Source: Pontibacter deserti (GTDB taxonomy: Bacteria; Bacteroidota; Bacteroidia; Cytophagales; Hymenobacteraceae). Taken from it: a stretch of 64,000 bases of DNA. Below are positions 24,972 through 28,585 of this stretch, one piece after another (position 1 is the first letter of the stretch; each line of letters starts with the position of its first letter). Under the pieces are notes generated by a model. The model did not search any database, was not told the origin of the DNA, and saw only the letters and a list, made by a program, of their open reading frames with translations. Location of the stretch: positions 310,001 through 374,000 of the forward strand of contig NZ_JALPRS010000001.1 of assembly GCF_023630255.1 (NCBI RefSeq), in the 5' to 3' direction. The position numbers and the translations under genes were made by a program.

Positions 24972-25817
24972 TTACATGAATTCACCAGATGGGATATGAT
25001 AGGAGCGGCCTTTAGGCAACACGTGCATGATCAGGTTCTCAACACAAAGGGCTTGTCCTTTTTCTATACTGTTATAGTTGTTCTCCTCCAGTTTCCGCCC
25101 ATCAATTACAACTACCAACCCTGAGCCTATAGTTTCGATGCAGTTGTTTTCAGTTATCATAATACCTGTGTCTTCGCCAAGCCCAATACCAATGTGGGTA
25201 GGGTGGCCGGCAATAGCTTCGATAAGGCGAGGTATGCGACGGCGGTTTACAAAATGTGTATCAATGATAACATGGTCCAGTATACCCAAGCCTGGAGCTA
25301 ATTCCACGGTACCTTTAATGAGCGGGTCAGTCTGCAGAGAACCACTTATCATGATCCGGGATAAAGCCATGGCACCGGCACTGGTTCCTGAGATAAGAAA
25401 TTTATCTTCCTGCTGGTAGCGTGTTTTCAGGATATGGAGTGCTTCTGAGTTCTCAAAAATCGGGATGATCCGACACTGATCACCTCCGGTAAACATAACC
25501 GCATCTGCTTTCCGTAGCCGTTCCAAAAAGTCTGGTCGCTTAGTATCTTCAGGTTGCTGAATGGGCAAAACACCTACGTTGTCGCACCCAAGTAGTAAGA
25601 AAGCATCTGTATAGATCTGGCCTGCCGCTTCCGGGGTTATGGTTGCTGAAGTCACTACTTCGATGCGGGTGCCCAAGCCATGCAGTTCATCGTGTATGCG
25701 TTTTAGAATCCCTTCATCTACAGCATTTTGATGGTGAACTATACCTTCTGATACCGATTCATTGCCTTTCTTTTCGTTGCCACCTATGGCTACTATTTTT
25801 CCTTTGGGTACCTCCAT
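24972..25817 (-). CDS. cphB: Cyanophycinase (peptidase family S51)
   Basis: A 281-residue protein opening PKGKIVAIGGNEKKGNE, with AVMFTGGDQCRII and the nucleophile elbow FLISGTSAGAMALS holding the catalytic serine, then LGLGILDHVIIDTHFVNRRR and GIGLGEDTGIMI, all standard for cyanophycinases. The enzyme hydrolyses multi-L-arginyl-poly-L-aspartate into beta-Asp-Arg dipeptides. Intracellular (no signal peptide). The matching polymer synthetase is in the same window at 54652-57282, 29 kb away, which supports a real storage cycle in this organism. Confidence 0.94.
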   Translation of the reverse strand: MEVPKGKIVAIGGNEKKGNESVSEGIVHHQNAVDEGILKRIHDELHGLGTRIEVVTSATITPEAAGQIYTDAFLLLGCDNVGVLPIQQPEDTKRPDFLERLRKADAVMFTGGDQCRIIPIFENSEALHILKTRYQQEDKFLISGTSAGAMALSRIMISGSLQTDPLIKGTVELAPGLGILDHVIIDTHFVNRRRIPRLIEAIAGHPTHIGIGLGEDTGIMITENNCIETIGSGLVVVIDGRKLEENNYNSIEKGQALCVENLIMHVLPKGRSYHIPSGEFM

Positions 25818-25931: not shown

Positions 25932-26678
25932 TTACAGGTTCAGGATCATGTCGTTTAGTTTGCGGGCATCGAGTACAGCATTACCTAAAATGGTGTTGTT
26001 AAAGAAAACCCATACCTGCTTTTCATCCTCCAGCCACTCTTTCACCATATAGGCATAACGTTCCAGTTTATCATCGGAATAAGCAGAGGAGTACATTTTC
26101 TCGTCGCCGTGCAGGCGTAGGTAGGCAATGTTGGTAGTTGTTACCTCAGTACCCGGAAAGCGTTTGCCTGCGCTGGCAATTACAGTGGTAATGTCATAGT
26201 CTCGCAGCAGGTCCAGCGACTCATCAGTAAACCACGATACATGGCGGGCTTCCAAAGCAAAAGCCTGATCCGGGTATTTATCGCGGAGCAACCTGTAAAA
26301 CGATTCTGCTGTTGGCCTATGGAAACGGAAGCTGCCCGCGATCTGCACCAGTACCGGGCCAAGGCGATCACCCATTAAACTATAGCTGGCCATAAATTTG
26401 TCCAGCGGGGCCTCAGCATCTGTAAACTTGCGTTTATGGGTTATTTCCTGGTTTAACTTTGGTGCAAATTTGAAGTAGGACGGAGTAGTAGCCAGCCATT
26501 TCTCCACAGTTTTAGCCATCGTGAAATGATAAAAGCTGCTGTTTATCTCGGTTGAATTGAAATGGGTAGCATAGTAGGATAGCCGTTCCGCGGATTTCAG
26601 CTCTGGAGGGTATAGTACTTCCAGCCAGCGATAGCTCCATCCCGATGTGCCCATGTATAAGTTTGGTATATGTTCCAT
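25932..26678 (-). CDS. DUF72 family protein
   Basis: A 248-residue TIM-barrel-like protein: YMGTSGWSYRWLEVLYP at the N-terminus, YATHFNSTEINSSFY, FKFAPKLNQEITHKR and YLRLHGDEKMYSSAYSDD are the family landmarks. DUF72 proteins have no proven activity. I use the ATG at 26678 because the family normally starts a few residues before GTSGW; an ATG 12 bases further out is equally possible. It precedes cyanophycinase by 114 bp on the same strand, but nothing else links the two. Confidence 0.88.
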   Translation of the reverse strand: MEHIPNLYMGTSGWSYRWLEVLYPPELKSAERLSYYATHFNSTEINSSFYHFTMAKTVEKWLATTPSYFKFAPKLNQEITHKRKFTDAEAPLDKFMASYSLMGDRLGPVLVQIAGSFRFHRPTAESFYRLLRDKYPDQAFALEARHVSWFTDESLDLLRDYDITTVIASAGKRFPGTEVTTTNIAYLRLHGDEKMYSSAYSDDKLERYAYMVKEWLEDEKQVWVFFNNTILGNAVLDARKLNDMILNL

Positions 26679-26832
26679 AGTATAGCGCAAGGTGTTGCAG
26701 CTACCTACGTTTGGAAAACCGGGCAGTTAAAAGTATAGCTTACTTAATTTAATGAGAAGCAAACGTTAGAATATGTATGTGATTTTAATTCAGTTGTTTA
26801 GGCTTGCTGTTGAGATGTTTTTACTATCTGGG

Positions 26833-26865
26833 TTTGCATTATTAAAAGCTTGGGCCTTACCTTTG
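26833..26865 (+). promoter_or_regulatory. Bacteroidota-type promoter of the riboswitch-leader-permease unit
   Basis: TTTG (26833-26836) and TACCTTTG (26858-26865) are separated by 21 bp and match the Bacteroidota -33/-7 consensus. The expected start, about 26871-26873, coincides with the first base of the riboswitch-like structure. Confidence 0.75.
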
Positions 26866-26870
26866 CAGCA

Positions 26871-26983
26871 TCTTTATCAAGATTTATAAAGAAGAGGGGA
26901 GAGAGCAGGCTCCGCGAACCTCTAGCAACCAGCAAAACAAATTGAAATGGTGCTAACTCCTGCCCAGTTTTGGGATATATAAA
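26871..26983 (+). ncRNA. SAM riboswitch-like aptamer (S-box family, variant)
   Basis: The conserved core elements of S-box RNA are present in order: TTATCAAGA, a purine-rich P2 region (GAGG...CCTC, with GCAGG able to pair with CCTGC), TAGCAACC, a variable P3 loop, GGTGCTAACTCCTGCC, a P4 stem CCCA-GTTTT-GGG and a closing GATA that pairs with the 5' TATC. GCAACC and GGTGC pair as P3. The P2 arm is shorter than in classic SAM-I, so it may belong to a variant of the SAM-I/IV clan. It starts at the predicted transcription start and precedes a gene of the family containing MetT-type methionine permeases. Assigned by eye; a covariance search was not possible. Confidence 0.65.
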
Positions 26984-26991
26984 TTAGTAGC

Positions 26992-27090
26992 ATGTTAGCA
27001 AAATCAACAAAAACAGCCTTTTATTTACCAGCATCATTCTTTAAAGTAGCACCTGCCACTTCATGTTGCTGCTGTTGCTGTTGCTGTTAA
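26992..27090 (+). CDS. 32-residue leader peptide ending in eight consecutive cysteines
   Basis: An ATG directly after the aptamer opens a 32-codon frame: MLAKSTKTAFYLPASFFK, then VAPATS and eight Cys codons (mixed TGT and TGC), then TAA. The cysteine run sits at 27064-27087. No protein family is known to me for it. The mixed codons argue for selection on amino acid rather than a simple repeat expansion, though the TGTTGC unit is partly repetitive. Known poly-Cys leader ORFs in actinobacteria act as cysteine-responsive attenuators; by analogy, slow ribosome movement here when Cys-tRNA is scarce could govern the downstream permease. A small metal-binding peptide is the alternative. Confidence 0.6.
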   Translation: MLAKSTKTAFYLPASFFKVAPATSCCCCCCCC

Positions 27091-27139: not shown

Positions 27140-27235
27140 GCACTTTATACTTTCAATTCATTTTAATTTTTATTTCCAGGCCTGTTGTTACCGGAGTTAC
27201 TCTGGGCAGCTAAAGGTATTATTTCTTCAGTTTTT

Positions 27236-28585
27236 ATGGATCAGATCAAAAAGACAGGTGGAACAGCTCTCGTTCCATTTTTGGTGTTTGTTGTATTATT
27301 TCTTGGCGCCGGTTTAGCGTTAGACGACTTTTATGCTTTGCCTTCGCCGGTGGCGGTAGTGTGCGGTATTATCGCTGCATTTATACTTTTAAAAGGAAGT
27401 ATAAATGCTAAAGTTGATGCCTTTATAAAAGGATGCGGCGATTCACAGATCATCACAATGTGTGTAATTTATTTGTTAGCCGGTGCATTTGCAGCTGTTT
27501 CTGAAGCAATAGGTGGCGTAGATGCCACAGTAAATCTCGGGTTAACTTACATTCCGGTGCAGTACCTTGCCTTAGGTGTGTTTTTACTGGCTTCTTTTTT
27601 ATCTACTGCTACCGGTACGTCGGTTGGGGCTATAGTGGCCTTAGGGCCTATAGTTGTGGGGCTGGCCGAACAAAGTGGCTCTCCGCTACCAATTATGTTA
27701 GGTGCTTTGCTGGGCGGAGCCATGTTTGGTGATAACCTTTCTTTTATCTCAGATACCACCATTGCTGCTACCCAGACCCAGGATTGCGACATGAAAGATA
27801 AATTCAGGGTGAACCTGCTGATTGCCGGGCCTGCCGCTTTTGTAACAATTGGTCTTTTACTTTTTGCAGGATTACAGACTACTGCTGCGCAGGAGGTATT
27901 GCCTGTAGCAAAGGAAATTGATTTTCTGAAAATAGCACCTTATTTACTTGTGCTGTTCCTGGCAGTATATGGCATAAATGTATTTGTGGTATTGGTGTTA
28001 GGTATACTTGCTTCAGGTGTAGTAGGTATAGCCGGCGGTGATCTGGATGTGTTGCTGTTCAGTAAGAAAGTTTATGAAGGCTTTACCAGCATGACCGAAA
28101 TATTTCTGCTTTCGATGCTTACAGGTGGACTGGCAGAAATGGTAAGACAGGCTGGGGGTATTCAGTTTCTATTGAACAACGCCAACAAGATGATTAATGG
28201 CTATCGCTCTGCACAACTGGGAATAGGTCTGTTAGTGAGCGGCGTGAACAGTGCTATTGCTAACAACACAGTATCCATAGTTGTAACCGGGCCGGTTGCA
28301 AAAGAGATCAGCCAGCGGTATGCTATCAAAAGACTGAAAACAGCTGCTATCATTGATATCTTTGCCTGCATTGTGCAGGGATTGCTTCCTTACGGCGCAC
28401 AAATACTGATCATGCTTAATTTTACTGGTGGTAAGGTTCAATTTCTGGATGTGCTGCCTTATGCGTGGTATCTGTACCTGTTGCTTTTATTTACTTTGCT
28501 GGCCATTTATACCCCTTTTGTAGACAGGTTCTTACTTAAAAAAGAGGTTAATAAATTACAGGCAAGGGAAACTGTTGCTAATTAG
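27236..28585 (+). CDS. NhaC-family permease, probable methionine or sulfur-amino-acid transporter (MetT-like)
   Basis: A 449-residue integral membrane protein with about 11-12 helices. NhaC-family landmarks are TATGTSVGAIVALGPIVVGL, GGAMFGDNLSFISDTTIAAT and LVSGVNSAIANNTVSIVVTG. I start it at the ATG at 27236 (DQIKKTGGTALVPFLVF); an upstream TTG at 27185 would add 17 unlikely residues. NhaC homologues include Na+/H+ antiporters and the predicted methionine permease MetT, which is regulated by S-box RNAs in several bacteria. The SAM-riboswitch-like and poly-Cys leader upstream make sulfur amino acid uptake the best guess. Confidence 0.88.
   Translation: MDQIKKTGGTALVPFLVFVVLFLGAGLALDDFYALPSPVAVVCGIIAAFILLKGSINAKVDAFIKGCGDSQIITMCVIYLLAGAFAAVSEAIGGVDATVNLGLTYIPVQYLALGVFLLASFLSTATGTSVGAIVALGPIVVGLAEQSGSPLPIMLGALLGGAMFGDNLSFISDTTIAATQTQDCDMKDKFRVNLLIAGPAAFVTIGLLLFAGLQTTAAQEVLPVAKEIDFLKIAPYLLVLFLAVYGINVFVVLVLGILASGVVGIAGGDLDVLLFSKKVYEGFTSMTEIFLLSMLTGGLAEMVRQAGGIQFLLNNANKMINGYRSAQLGIGLLVSGVNSAIANNTVSIVVTGPVAKEISQRYAIKRLKTAAIIDIFACIVQGLLPYGAQILIMLNFTGGKVQFLDVLPYAWYLYLLLLFTLLAIYTPFVDRFLLKKEVNKLQARETVAN

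What the first reader, a model, noticed from the sequence alone, without database searches (positions are those of the whole stretch)
26992..27090. Leader ORF ending in eight consecutive cysteine codons
Directly after a riboswitch-like aptamer there is a 32-codon ORF whose last eight residues are all Cys, coded by mixed TGT/TGC, followed at once by TAA. Poly-Cys leader ORFs acting as cysteine-responsive attenuators are described in mycobacteria; I know of no described example in Bacteroidota. Here it precedes a permease gene, so scarcity of Cys-tRNA could stall ribosomes and change expression of a transporter.
Basis: partly seen in the sequence, partly recalled or inferred. Interest (0 to 1): 0.88.

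Follow-up and report, generated by a model that had tools for sequence, protein, structure and literature searches.

The report
Cysteine-codon switch gated by SAM riboswitch
In Pontibacter and related bacteria a SAM riboswitch is followed within a few bases by a short reading frame that ends in a run of cysteine codons, mostly ahead of sulfur-metabolism genes, and the pair is predicted to work as one switch that checks both SAM and cysteine supply before the genes are turned on.

Summary
Window 26992-27090 is an ATG ORF of 32 codons ending in eight Cys codons and TAA. Six bases separate it from a SAM-I riboswitch (RF00162, 76 bits); an NhaC-family permease gene follows.
It is not a one-off. 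Of the 118 SAM-I leaders found in 39 genomes, 76 carry such a Cys-tailed ORF, 73 of them starting 6-14 nt after the aptamer. With two wider, partly read samples the total is 103 of 267 leaders, in 11 families. Downstream are metY, cysH, sulfite/nitrite reductase, nhaC and other genes; 0 of 61 metH leaders have it.
Frame, start, Cys run and stop are kept while the middle of the peptide drifts. 101 of the 103 have one P1 type, whose 3' strand ends a few bases before the ORF's start codon.
I infer a two-input switch in series: SAM-bound P1 blocks translation of the ORF; at low SAM, Cys-tRNA shortage stalls the ribosome and frees the downstream gene. Translation, stalling and the last step are untested; intrinsic terminators are not enriched. 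Ten literature searches listed no description of it.

The parts
26858..26865 (+). promoter -7-like box TACCTTTG (consensus TAnnTTTG of Bacteroidota sigma-A)
   Evidence: read; consensus as printed in PMC9723704 (passage). TAnnTTTG lies within 45 nt upstream of the aptamer in 48 of 76 uORF+ leaders and 13 of 42 uORF- leaders, against 3 of 118 control windows. Transcription start untested.
26881..26985 (+). SAM-I riboswitch aptamer (S box)
   Evidence: RF00162, 76.1 bits, gathering 44.4; ligand binding not tested
26881..26888 (+). 5' strand of helix P1 (GATTTATA)
   Evidence: complementary to 26978-26985 (one G-U); pairing pattern over 81 leaders. An unconstrained minimum-energy fold of the leader does not show this helix.
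26978..26985 (+). 3' strand of helix P1 (TATAAATT), ends 6 nt before the uORF start codon
26992..27090 (+). leader ORF (uORF), 32 codons, MLAKSTKTAFYLPASFFKVAPATSCCCCCCCC, stop TAA
   Evidence: a Cys-tailed ORF in this slot in 76 of 118 SAM-I leaders
27064..27087 (+). run of eight Cys codons (TGT/TGC mixed), flush with the stop codon
27091..27235 (+). spacer between uORF stop and permease start; no intrinsic terminator found in it
   Evidence: scan (four sites in the region, all inside the permease gene); 15 of 75 spacers of sample 1 terminator-like against 12.1 expected
27236..28585 (+). NhaC-family permease gene (MDQIKKTGG...), the presumed controlled gene
   Evidence: PF03553 79.8 bits; most relatives in the genus start at a similar MxxIxxxGG. 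A TTG at 27185 in frame is a possible earlier start.

Best explanation
The leader holds a SAM-I riboswitch whose closing helix P1 ends 6 bases before the start codon of a 32-codon ORF with eight terminal Cys codons; SAM binding would likely block translation of that ORF, and when SAM is low a ribosome is predicted to stall on the Cys codons if Cys-tRNA is short, which would turn on the downstream gene. Step 1 (geometry shown, effect inferred): the SAM-bound aptamer stabilises P1, whose 3' strand lies in the uORF initiation region, so high SAM keeps the uORF untranslated and the gene off. Step 2 (sequence signature shown, effect inferred): at low SAM the uORF is translated and its last codons test Cys-tRNA. 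Step 3 (inferred, weakest): a ribosome that reaches the stop leaves the gene off, while one held on the Cys run changes the fold or Rho access of the spacer and lets transcription go on. The gene would be on only when SAM and cysteine are both scarce; metH, which has the aptamer but another platform and no uORF, would answer to SAM alone.
For: 76 of 118 SAM-I leaders in 39 genomes carry the uORF, 73 of them at +6 to +14 after the aptamer. Unbiased frame test: 75 runs in frame 0, 0 in frame 1, 8 in frame 2. Targets fit a sulfur signal: in the 39 genomes metY 28 of 29, cysH 10 of 10 by N-terminal motif (a further cysH-type leader, L093, fails), sulfite/nitrite reductase 11 of 11, nhaC 11 of 11 (examples named by HMM); metH 0 of 61 over all samples. 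P1 type TATAAR: 101 of 136 leaders uORF+; other P1: 2 of 131. P1 extends outward towards the uORF, with all six standard pair types at one position, and ends 3-9 nt before the first ATG in 72 of 81. In three leaders with that P1 a gene starts in the uORF's own slot: an O-succinylhomoserine sulfhydrylase-like gene (L073, L076) and an alpha/beta-hydrolase gene that I take for metX (L191). metH leaders of the 39 genomes carry a competing copy of the P1 strand in 25 of 31, uORF+ leaders in 1 of 76 (1.6 expected). In 22 closest pairs, changes by codon position are 14/16/46 in codons with Cys and 209/187/197 in the others.
Against: No translation, SAM-binding or expression data. The spacer shows no common terminator, and pairing of the Cys run with the spacer exceeds shuffles clearly only in the sulfite-reductase group, so step 3 has no shown device. 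35 of 136 leaders with this P1 lack an ATG Cys uORF (five of those have one from GTG by a loose rule). L028, a metY leader of the same genus, has lost the Cys run, and L093, before a PAPS reductase, ends only in HCCRY. Outside the first sample metY leaders often lack it: 31 of 35 and 5 of 17. An unconstrained fold of the window leader does not form P1 and is no more stable than shuffles (z -0.28). The codon-position test leans on a protein alignment that places Cys on Cys, and in metY alone the third-position excess is weak (46/36/73).
Confidence: 0.6

Rival explanations
1. SAM gates a translated leader and the Cys run only slows or positions the terminating ribosome; cysteine supply is not read. 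Translation of the uORF, whenever SAM is low, protects the RNA from Rho and the gene is on.
For: In M. tuberculosis an Mbox controls a uORF together with Rho termination, and uORFs modulate two B12-riboswitch genes (PMC12810186, abstract and discussion; PMC11260477, abstract). No intrinsic-terminator enrichment. Spacers are richer in C (26.2%) than in G (18.1%).
Against: Cys is what recurs at the end of otherwise unrelated peptides, and most genes behind it make sulfide, homocysteine or cysteine. A mere spacer ORF would not need 3-8 Cys codons.
Confidence: 0.2
2. The product is a working small Cys-rich protein (metal or thiol binding) co-regulated with sulfur genes.
For: Up to eight Cys; found in many genomes.
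Against: Apart from a few N-terminal residues within a gene group and the Cys tail, the sequence drifts at all codon positions; length varies from 27 to 51 residues; the L002 peptide finds no relative among predicted proteins (three shared 5-residue words are required, one peptide tried).
Confidence: 0.07
3. The TGY run is an RNA element that pairs with the spacer; the reading frame is incidental.
For: In the sulfite-reductase leaders the run pairs with the spacer better than with shuffles (11 leaders, mean z -1.87; control stretch -0.06), often at elements such as ACAGCAGCAA.
Against: Other groups show little (mean z +0.07 to -0.77, in metY no more than the control stretch at -0.87); frame 0 in 75 of 83 runs, ending at or near an in-frame stop.
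Confidence: 0.08
4. Chance, or a trinucleotide repeat that expanded in one locus.
For: TGY arrays occur elsewhere in such genomes.
Against: Same slot in unrelated leaders and 11 families, mixed codons, frame and stop kept; 1 of 30 TPP leaders.
Confidence: 0.02

Closest known systems
Polycysteine short-ORF attenuators of mycobacteria (Canestrari et al. 2020, Mol Microbiol; paper not held, seen only as cited in PMC9094748 and PMC13236596)
   Same: Cys-codon-rich uORF before cysteine genes, read as a cysteine sensor; PMC13236596 calls it translation attenuation (passages).
   Different: There leaderless ORFs (by the title) in another phylum, and no riboswitch is mentioned in the passages that I saw; here the ORF lies behind a SAM-I aptamer and, by inference, under its control.
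B12-riboswitch/uORF interplay of M. tuberculosis metE and ppe2 (PMC11260477, abstract)
   Same: Riboswitch and translated uORF act together in one leader.
   Different: Other ligand; no control codons for an amino acid named in the abstract.
Mbox-controlled uORF rv1805A with Rho termination (PMC12810186, abstract and discussion)
   Same: Aptamer controls initiation of a uORF, coupled with transcription termination.
   Different: Mg2+ sensor; the uORF product is conserved and suspected to act as a peptide; no amino-acid sensing in what I read.
SAM-I riboswitch of Xanthomonas that also senses uncharged initiator tRNA (PMC7270179, abstract)
   Same: SAM-I element with a second, tRNA-related input for sulfur amino acids.
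   Different: tRNA binds the RNA directly; no uORF or codon run in the abstract.
SAM-I riboswitches with the RBS in the 3' side of P1 (PMC2258182, passages)
   Same: P1 itself hides the initiation region.
   Different: Described for a gene's RBS; here the ORF is a short leader with Cys codons.
his/leu/trp leader-peptide attenuators (recalled)
   Same: Run of control codons near the end of a short leader ORF.
   Different: Those rest on a terminator/antiterminator; none found here as a rule; no aptamer.

Membership tests
SAM-I (S-box) riboswitch | Match to the RF00162 covariance model above gathering score | tested here: met
   76.1 against 44.4 bits
SAM-I (S-box) riboswitch | Binds SAM and changes expression | not testable with these tools
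   needs in-line probing or reporters
SAM-I (S-box) riboswitch | Sits before methionine/sulfur genes | tested here: met
   for the group: metY, cysH, sulfite/nitrite reductase, metH; the window's own gene is a permease of unknown substrate
Ribosome-mediated amino-acid attenuator | Short ORF with a run of codons for a relevant amino acid before a related gene | tested here: met
Ribosome-mediated amino-acid attenuator | Codon run conserved while the rest of the peptide drifts | tested here: met
   (with the alignment caveat; weaker in metY: 46/36/73 by position)
Ribosome-mediated amino-acid attenuator | Mutually exclusive terminator and antiterminator in the spacer | tested here: inconclusive
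   no terminator enrichment, 15 of 75 against 12.1; a shared hairpin in 13 metY spacers, 4 of 10 pairs with double changes, 5 of 29 in another 8; none of 23 in a 7-sequence subset
Mycobacterial polycysteine attenuator | Leaderless ORF starting at the transcript's 5' end | tested here: not met
   the ORF starts 111 nt after the aptamer start; transcript start itself not mapped
Riboswitch-controlled uORF | Aptamer helix occludes the uORF initiation region | tested here: inconclusive
   P1 ends 3-9 nt before the first ATG in 72 of 81. With P1 forced, the -18..+3 region is 0.36 unpaired, with its 5' strand removed 0.67, higher in 81 of 81; forcing P1 makes this partly true by construction

The most novel reading that the evidence does not exclude
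A natural two-input RNA switch wired in series: a SAM riboswitch decides whether a Cys-codon attenuator is read at all, so that a whole sulfur-assimilation regulon (sulfate reduction, sulfide incorporation, uptake) opens only when both SAM and charged Cys-tRNA are low, in Cytophagales and at least one further order. It would be the first known riboswitch whose output is an amino-acid-sensing leader peptide.
Probability: 0.5. Interest if true: 0.92.

Novelty: new variant of a known kind. Interest (0 to 1): 0.83.

Why it matters
Riboswitches and leader-peptide attenuators are usually treated as separate ways to sense metabolites. Here they recur as one unit, in the same order and spacing, before sulfur genes of many species. 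If the reading is right, it shows how a bacterium computes on two pools of one pathway (SAM and cysteine) with a single RNA and no protein regulator, and it gives Bacteroidota, whose mRNAs lack Shine-Dalgarno sites (PMC6847099, abstract), a translational riboswitch platform that can be tested directly. It also supplies about 100 natural variants for such tests and points to short ORFs that annotation may miss.

Tried and rejected
Streptolysin-S family hit of the peptide in NCBIfam (18 bits, cut-off 35): an effect of the Cys run, rejected. Poly-Leu reading of the same letters in another frame: the Cys frame, not the Leu frame, starts at the shared ATG slot and ends at the stop. Intrinsic terminators in the spacers: no enrichment (one of 76 leaders, with no usable spacer, was dropped). 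Pairing of the Cys run with the spacer as a general rule: only the sulfite-reductase group. Occlusion of the main gene's start: its -20..+12 region is if anything more open (0.60) than the rest of the spacer (0.48), which speaks against translational attenuation at the main gene (75 leaders). Ribosome-position folds for nine leaders: suggestive only. Genome-wide places of TGYTGYTGYTRA in the 39 genomes: the listing was cut short, so it could not be used for positions; such words are common (62 in the own genome, 9 for the reversed pattern). Cys uORF without aptamer: of 14 cysH-type loci in 13 of 23 genomes searched, the two with a Cys uORF (L314, L315) also have an S-box motif, one other (L324, the L093 leader) has the motif alone, and 11 have neither. 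NhaC relatives: 56 of 59 loci, all outside Pontibacter, show neither the S-box motif used nor a Cys-tailed ORF within 700 nt upstream (two loci hold less upstream DNA; the motif is strict and missed the aptamer of L283, which Rfam found). Protein search with the L002 peptide: none.

Full report
What is there. The window carries, on +, a SAM-I aptamer at 26881-26985 (RF00162, 76.1 bits, the only Rfam match over its gathering score in the window), then an ATG ORF at 26992-27090 that ends in eight Cys codons and TAA, then a 145-nt spacer, then an NhaC-family permease with ATG at 27236.

It recurs within the genome. Of the four SAM-I aptamers of the own genome, three are followed by a Cys-tailed ORF: the window (CCCCCCCC), L001 before a RimK-like ATP-grasp gene (CCCCCCC) and L002 before metY (CCCCCC); the fourth, before metH, has none. 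Of the places in this genome with five or more TGY codons in a row (16 overlapping matches), only these three are seen to belong to an ATG ORF that stops right after the run.

Census. The 118 SAM-I matches of 39 genomes (25 of the genus, 14 of other families of the order; 36 of the 39 have a match) were all fetched (plus loci given) and read with one rule: ATG ORF of 12-89 codons (10-89 in the later samples) starting from 20 nt before to 60 nt after the aptamer end, at least three Cys in the last 12 residues. 76 of 118 pass; 72 pass a stricter rule, CCC within the last six residues. Start: 73 of 76 at +6 to +14; stops TAA 48, TAG 22, TGA 6; Cys codons TGT 280, TGC 192. By downstream gene: metY 28 of 29, cysH 10 of 10, sulfite/nitrite reductase 11 of 11, nhaC 11 of 11, ATP-grasp 7 of 7, others 9 of 19, metH 0 of 31. 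The groups were set by N-terminal motifs and one member of each was checked by HMM. The grouping hides two cysH-type leaders in 'others': L113, which passes (its gene was found as L314), and L093 (PAPS reductase, PF01507), which does not (it ends in HCCRY).

Breadth. A phylum-wide sample (128 genomes, 111 with a match) was read in part: 90 leaders of 64 genomes, namely the 30 loci given and 60 chosen (the listed matches of the same class, order or family other than the own genome's, and eight distant ones; the listing was cut and at least two class-level matches were not in it). 5 of 90 pass (3 by the strict rule), in another genus of the family, in f16 of the same order and in three genomes of f17 of another order; none of the 35 more distant phylum-level leaders passes. 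An order-wide sample (59 genomes, 46 with a match) was read for 59 further leaders of 24 genomes (19 given, 40 chosen): 22 of 59 pass, 20 strictly. Together 103 of 267 leaders, in ten families of the order (f1, f2, f4, f5, f9, f14, f16, f46, f47, f50; f16 only by the loose rule) and one outside it (f17). Five more leaders, in a sister genus, have such an ORF from a GTG by a loose rule. Outside the first sample many metY leaders lack it: 4 of 35 and 12 of 17 have it; metH leaders never do, 0 of 61 in all. Further genes seen behind it include PAPS reductase (L359, L365), sulfite/nitrite reductase (L350), an NhaC-family permease (L362), a class-V aminotransferase that I take for a cysteine desulfurase (L354, weak Cys tail), a Cys/Met-metabolism PLP enzyme (L379), a SusC/RagA-type receptor (L075) and a zinc carboxypeptidase (L118).

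Is it coding? Starting from the first ATG behind the P1 strand in the 99 TATAAR leaders of the first two samples (5 have no ATG within 25 nt) and looking for any run of three or more TGY within 180 nt, 75 of 83 runs are in frame 0, none in frame 1, 8 in frame 2; from other ATGs further down the same loci, 1 run in 75 loci. TPP leaders of the same genomes: 1 of 30 read (of 51 matches) by the loose rule, not at the end of the ORF. Within a gene group the middle of the peptide changes about equally at all three codon positions, while codons with Cys change mostly at the third: 3/4/32 (sulfite reductase), 4/0/10 (cysH), but only 46/36/73 in metY; the nhaC and ATP-grasp groups gave too few changes. 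In 22 non-overlapping closest pairs: 14/16/46 with Cys, 209/187/197 without, Fisher p 6e-6; since the alignment was made on protein, this test leans somewhat towards the result. This is the pattern expected of a control-codon leader and not of a working peptide.

Coupling to the aptamer. Of 136 leaders whose P1 3' strand is TATAAR, 101 have the uORF; of 131 with another P1, 2 do. The P1 helix continues outward towards the uORF (median three further pairs, up to nine) and ends 3-9 nt before the first ATG in 72 of 81; one outward position shows all six standard pair types (outward pairs were counted only while they pair). The metH leaders use a different device: 25 of 31 have a downstream 9-mer complementary to the P1 5' strand, against 1 of 76 uORF+ leaders with 1.6 expected. 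In three leaders with the TATAAA-type P1 a gene starts directly in the slot: an O-succinylhomoserine sulfhydrylase-like gene (L073, L076) and an alpha/beta-hydrolase gene that I take for metX (L191). Together this suggests that in this platform P1 covers the initiation region of whatever ORF follows. SAM-I riboswitches with the RBS in P1 are known (PMC2258182, passages), and initiation in Bacteroidota is tuned by mRNA structure without Shine-Dalgarno sites (PMC6847099, abstract). Against it: the unconstrained fold of the window's leader does not show P1, which happens for aptamers folded without ligand (general knowledge).

The last step. Spacers fold better than mononucleotide shuffles (group means of z -1.1 to -3.2). 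Thirteen metY spacers share a hairpin with a GCAG/CUGC core in which 4 of 10 pairs have double changes, and eight others of the genus a related fold with 5 of 29; two of the 23 metY leaders of the genus were left out of both. A 7-sequence subset adds an outer helix starting just after the uORF stop, but without covariation. Intrinsic terminators are not enriched (15 of 75 against 12.1). The start region of the main gene is not hidden. I therefore lean to a Rho- or pausing-based device that a ribosome held at the end of the uORF blocks, but this is inference; antitermination and mRNA stability are not excluded.

Literature. Ten searches of the held library listed, by title and start of abstract, no paper that describes Cys-codon leaders in Bacteroidota or a SAM riboswitch joined to one; subscription papers are mostly not held, and the key mycobacterial paper (Canestrari 2020) could not be read. 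A Flavobacterium psychrophilum transcriptome paper reports strong clues for leader-peptide attenuation before amino-acid biosynthesis operons without naming these in the passages that I saw (PMC9723704); a Bacteroides thetaiotaomicron map mentions short ORFs in long 5' UTRs that recall leader peptides (PMC7366714, passages); their supplements were not open to me. A comparative study of RNA-motif regulons covers SAM (RF00162) and Bacteroidaceae (PMC3766115, passages). Closest in mechanism are riboswitch/uORF pairs of M. tuberculosis (PMC11260477 abstract; PMC12810186 abstract and discussion) and the Xanthomonas SAM-I element that also senses initiator tRNA (PMC7270179 abstract).

Verdict. A real, recurrent composite leader: SAM-I aptamer plus Cys-codon uORF, mostly before sulfur genes. 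Both halves are known kinds; their junction in series is, as far as I could search, new.

Noticed in passing
L068/L118 (G013), L085/L119 (G014), L100/L130 (G015): Back-to-back divergent SAM-I riboswitches, each with its own Cys-tailed uORF: a receptor-type gene (like L075, SusC/RagA family) on one side and a zinc-carboxypeptidase-like gene (L118, PF00246) on the other.
   Followed up: partly
L165, L346, L348, L371, L372 (sister genus g16): Same platform with ATATAAAAACAA before a GTG: the Cys-tailed ORF starts at GTG (loose rule).
   Followed up: partly
L028 (G007): A metY leader of the same genus where the uORF start is kept but the Cys run is gone; a natural loss variant.
   Followed up: no
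G038:C5:10749-14259: TGCTGCTGTTAA-type matches spaced by 234 bp or multiples of it: an apparent tandem repeat array.
   Followed up: no
L001 (own genome C1:1492763-1495865): A RimK-like ATP-grasp gene is under SAM aptamer plus Cys uORF in 7 of 7 leaders of its group in the first sample; its role in sulfur metabolism is unknown.
   Followed up: partly
window 24972-25817 and 25932-26690, strand -: Upstream neighbours: a peptidase S51 family protein (cyanophycinase-like, name recalled) and a DUF72 protein.
   Followed up: yes
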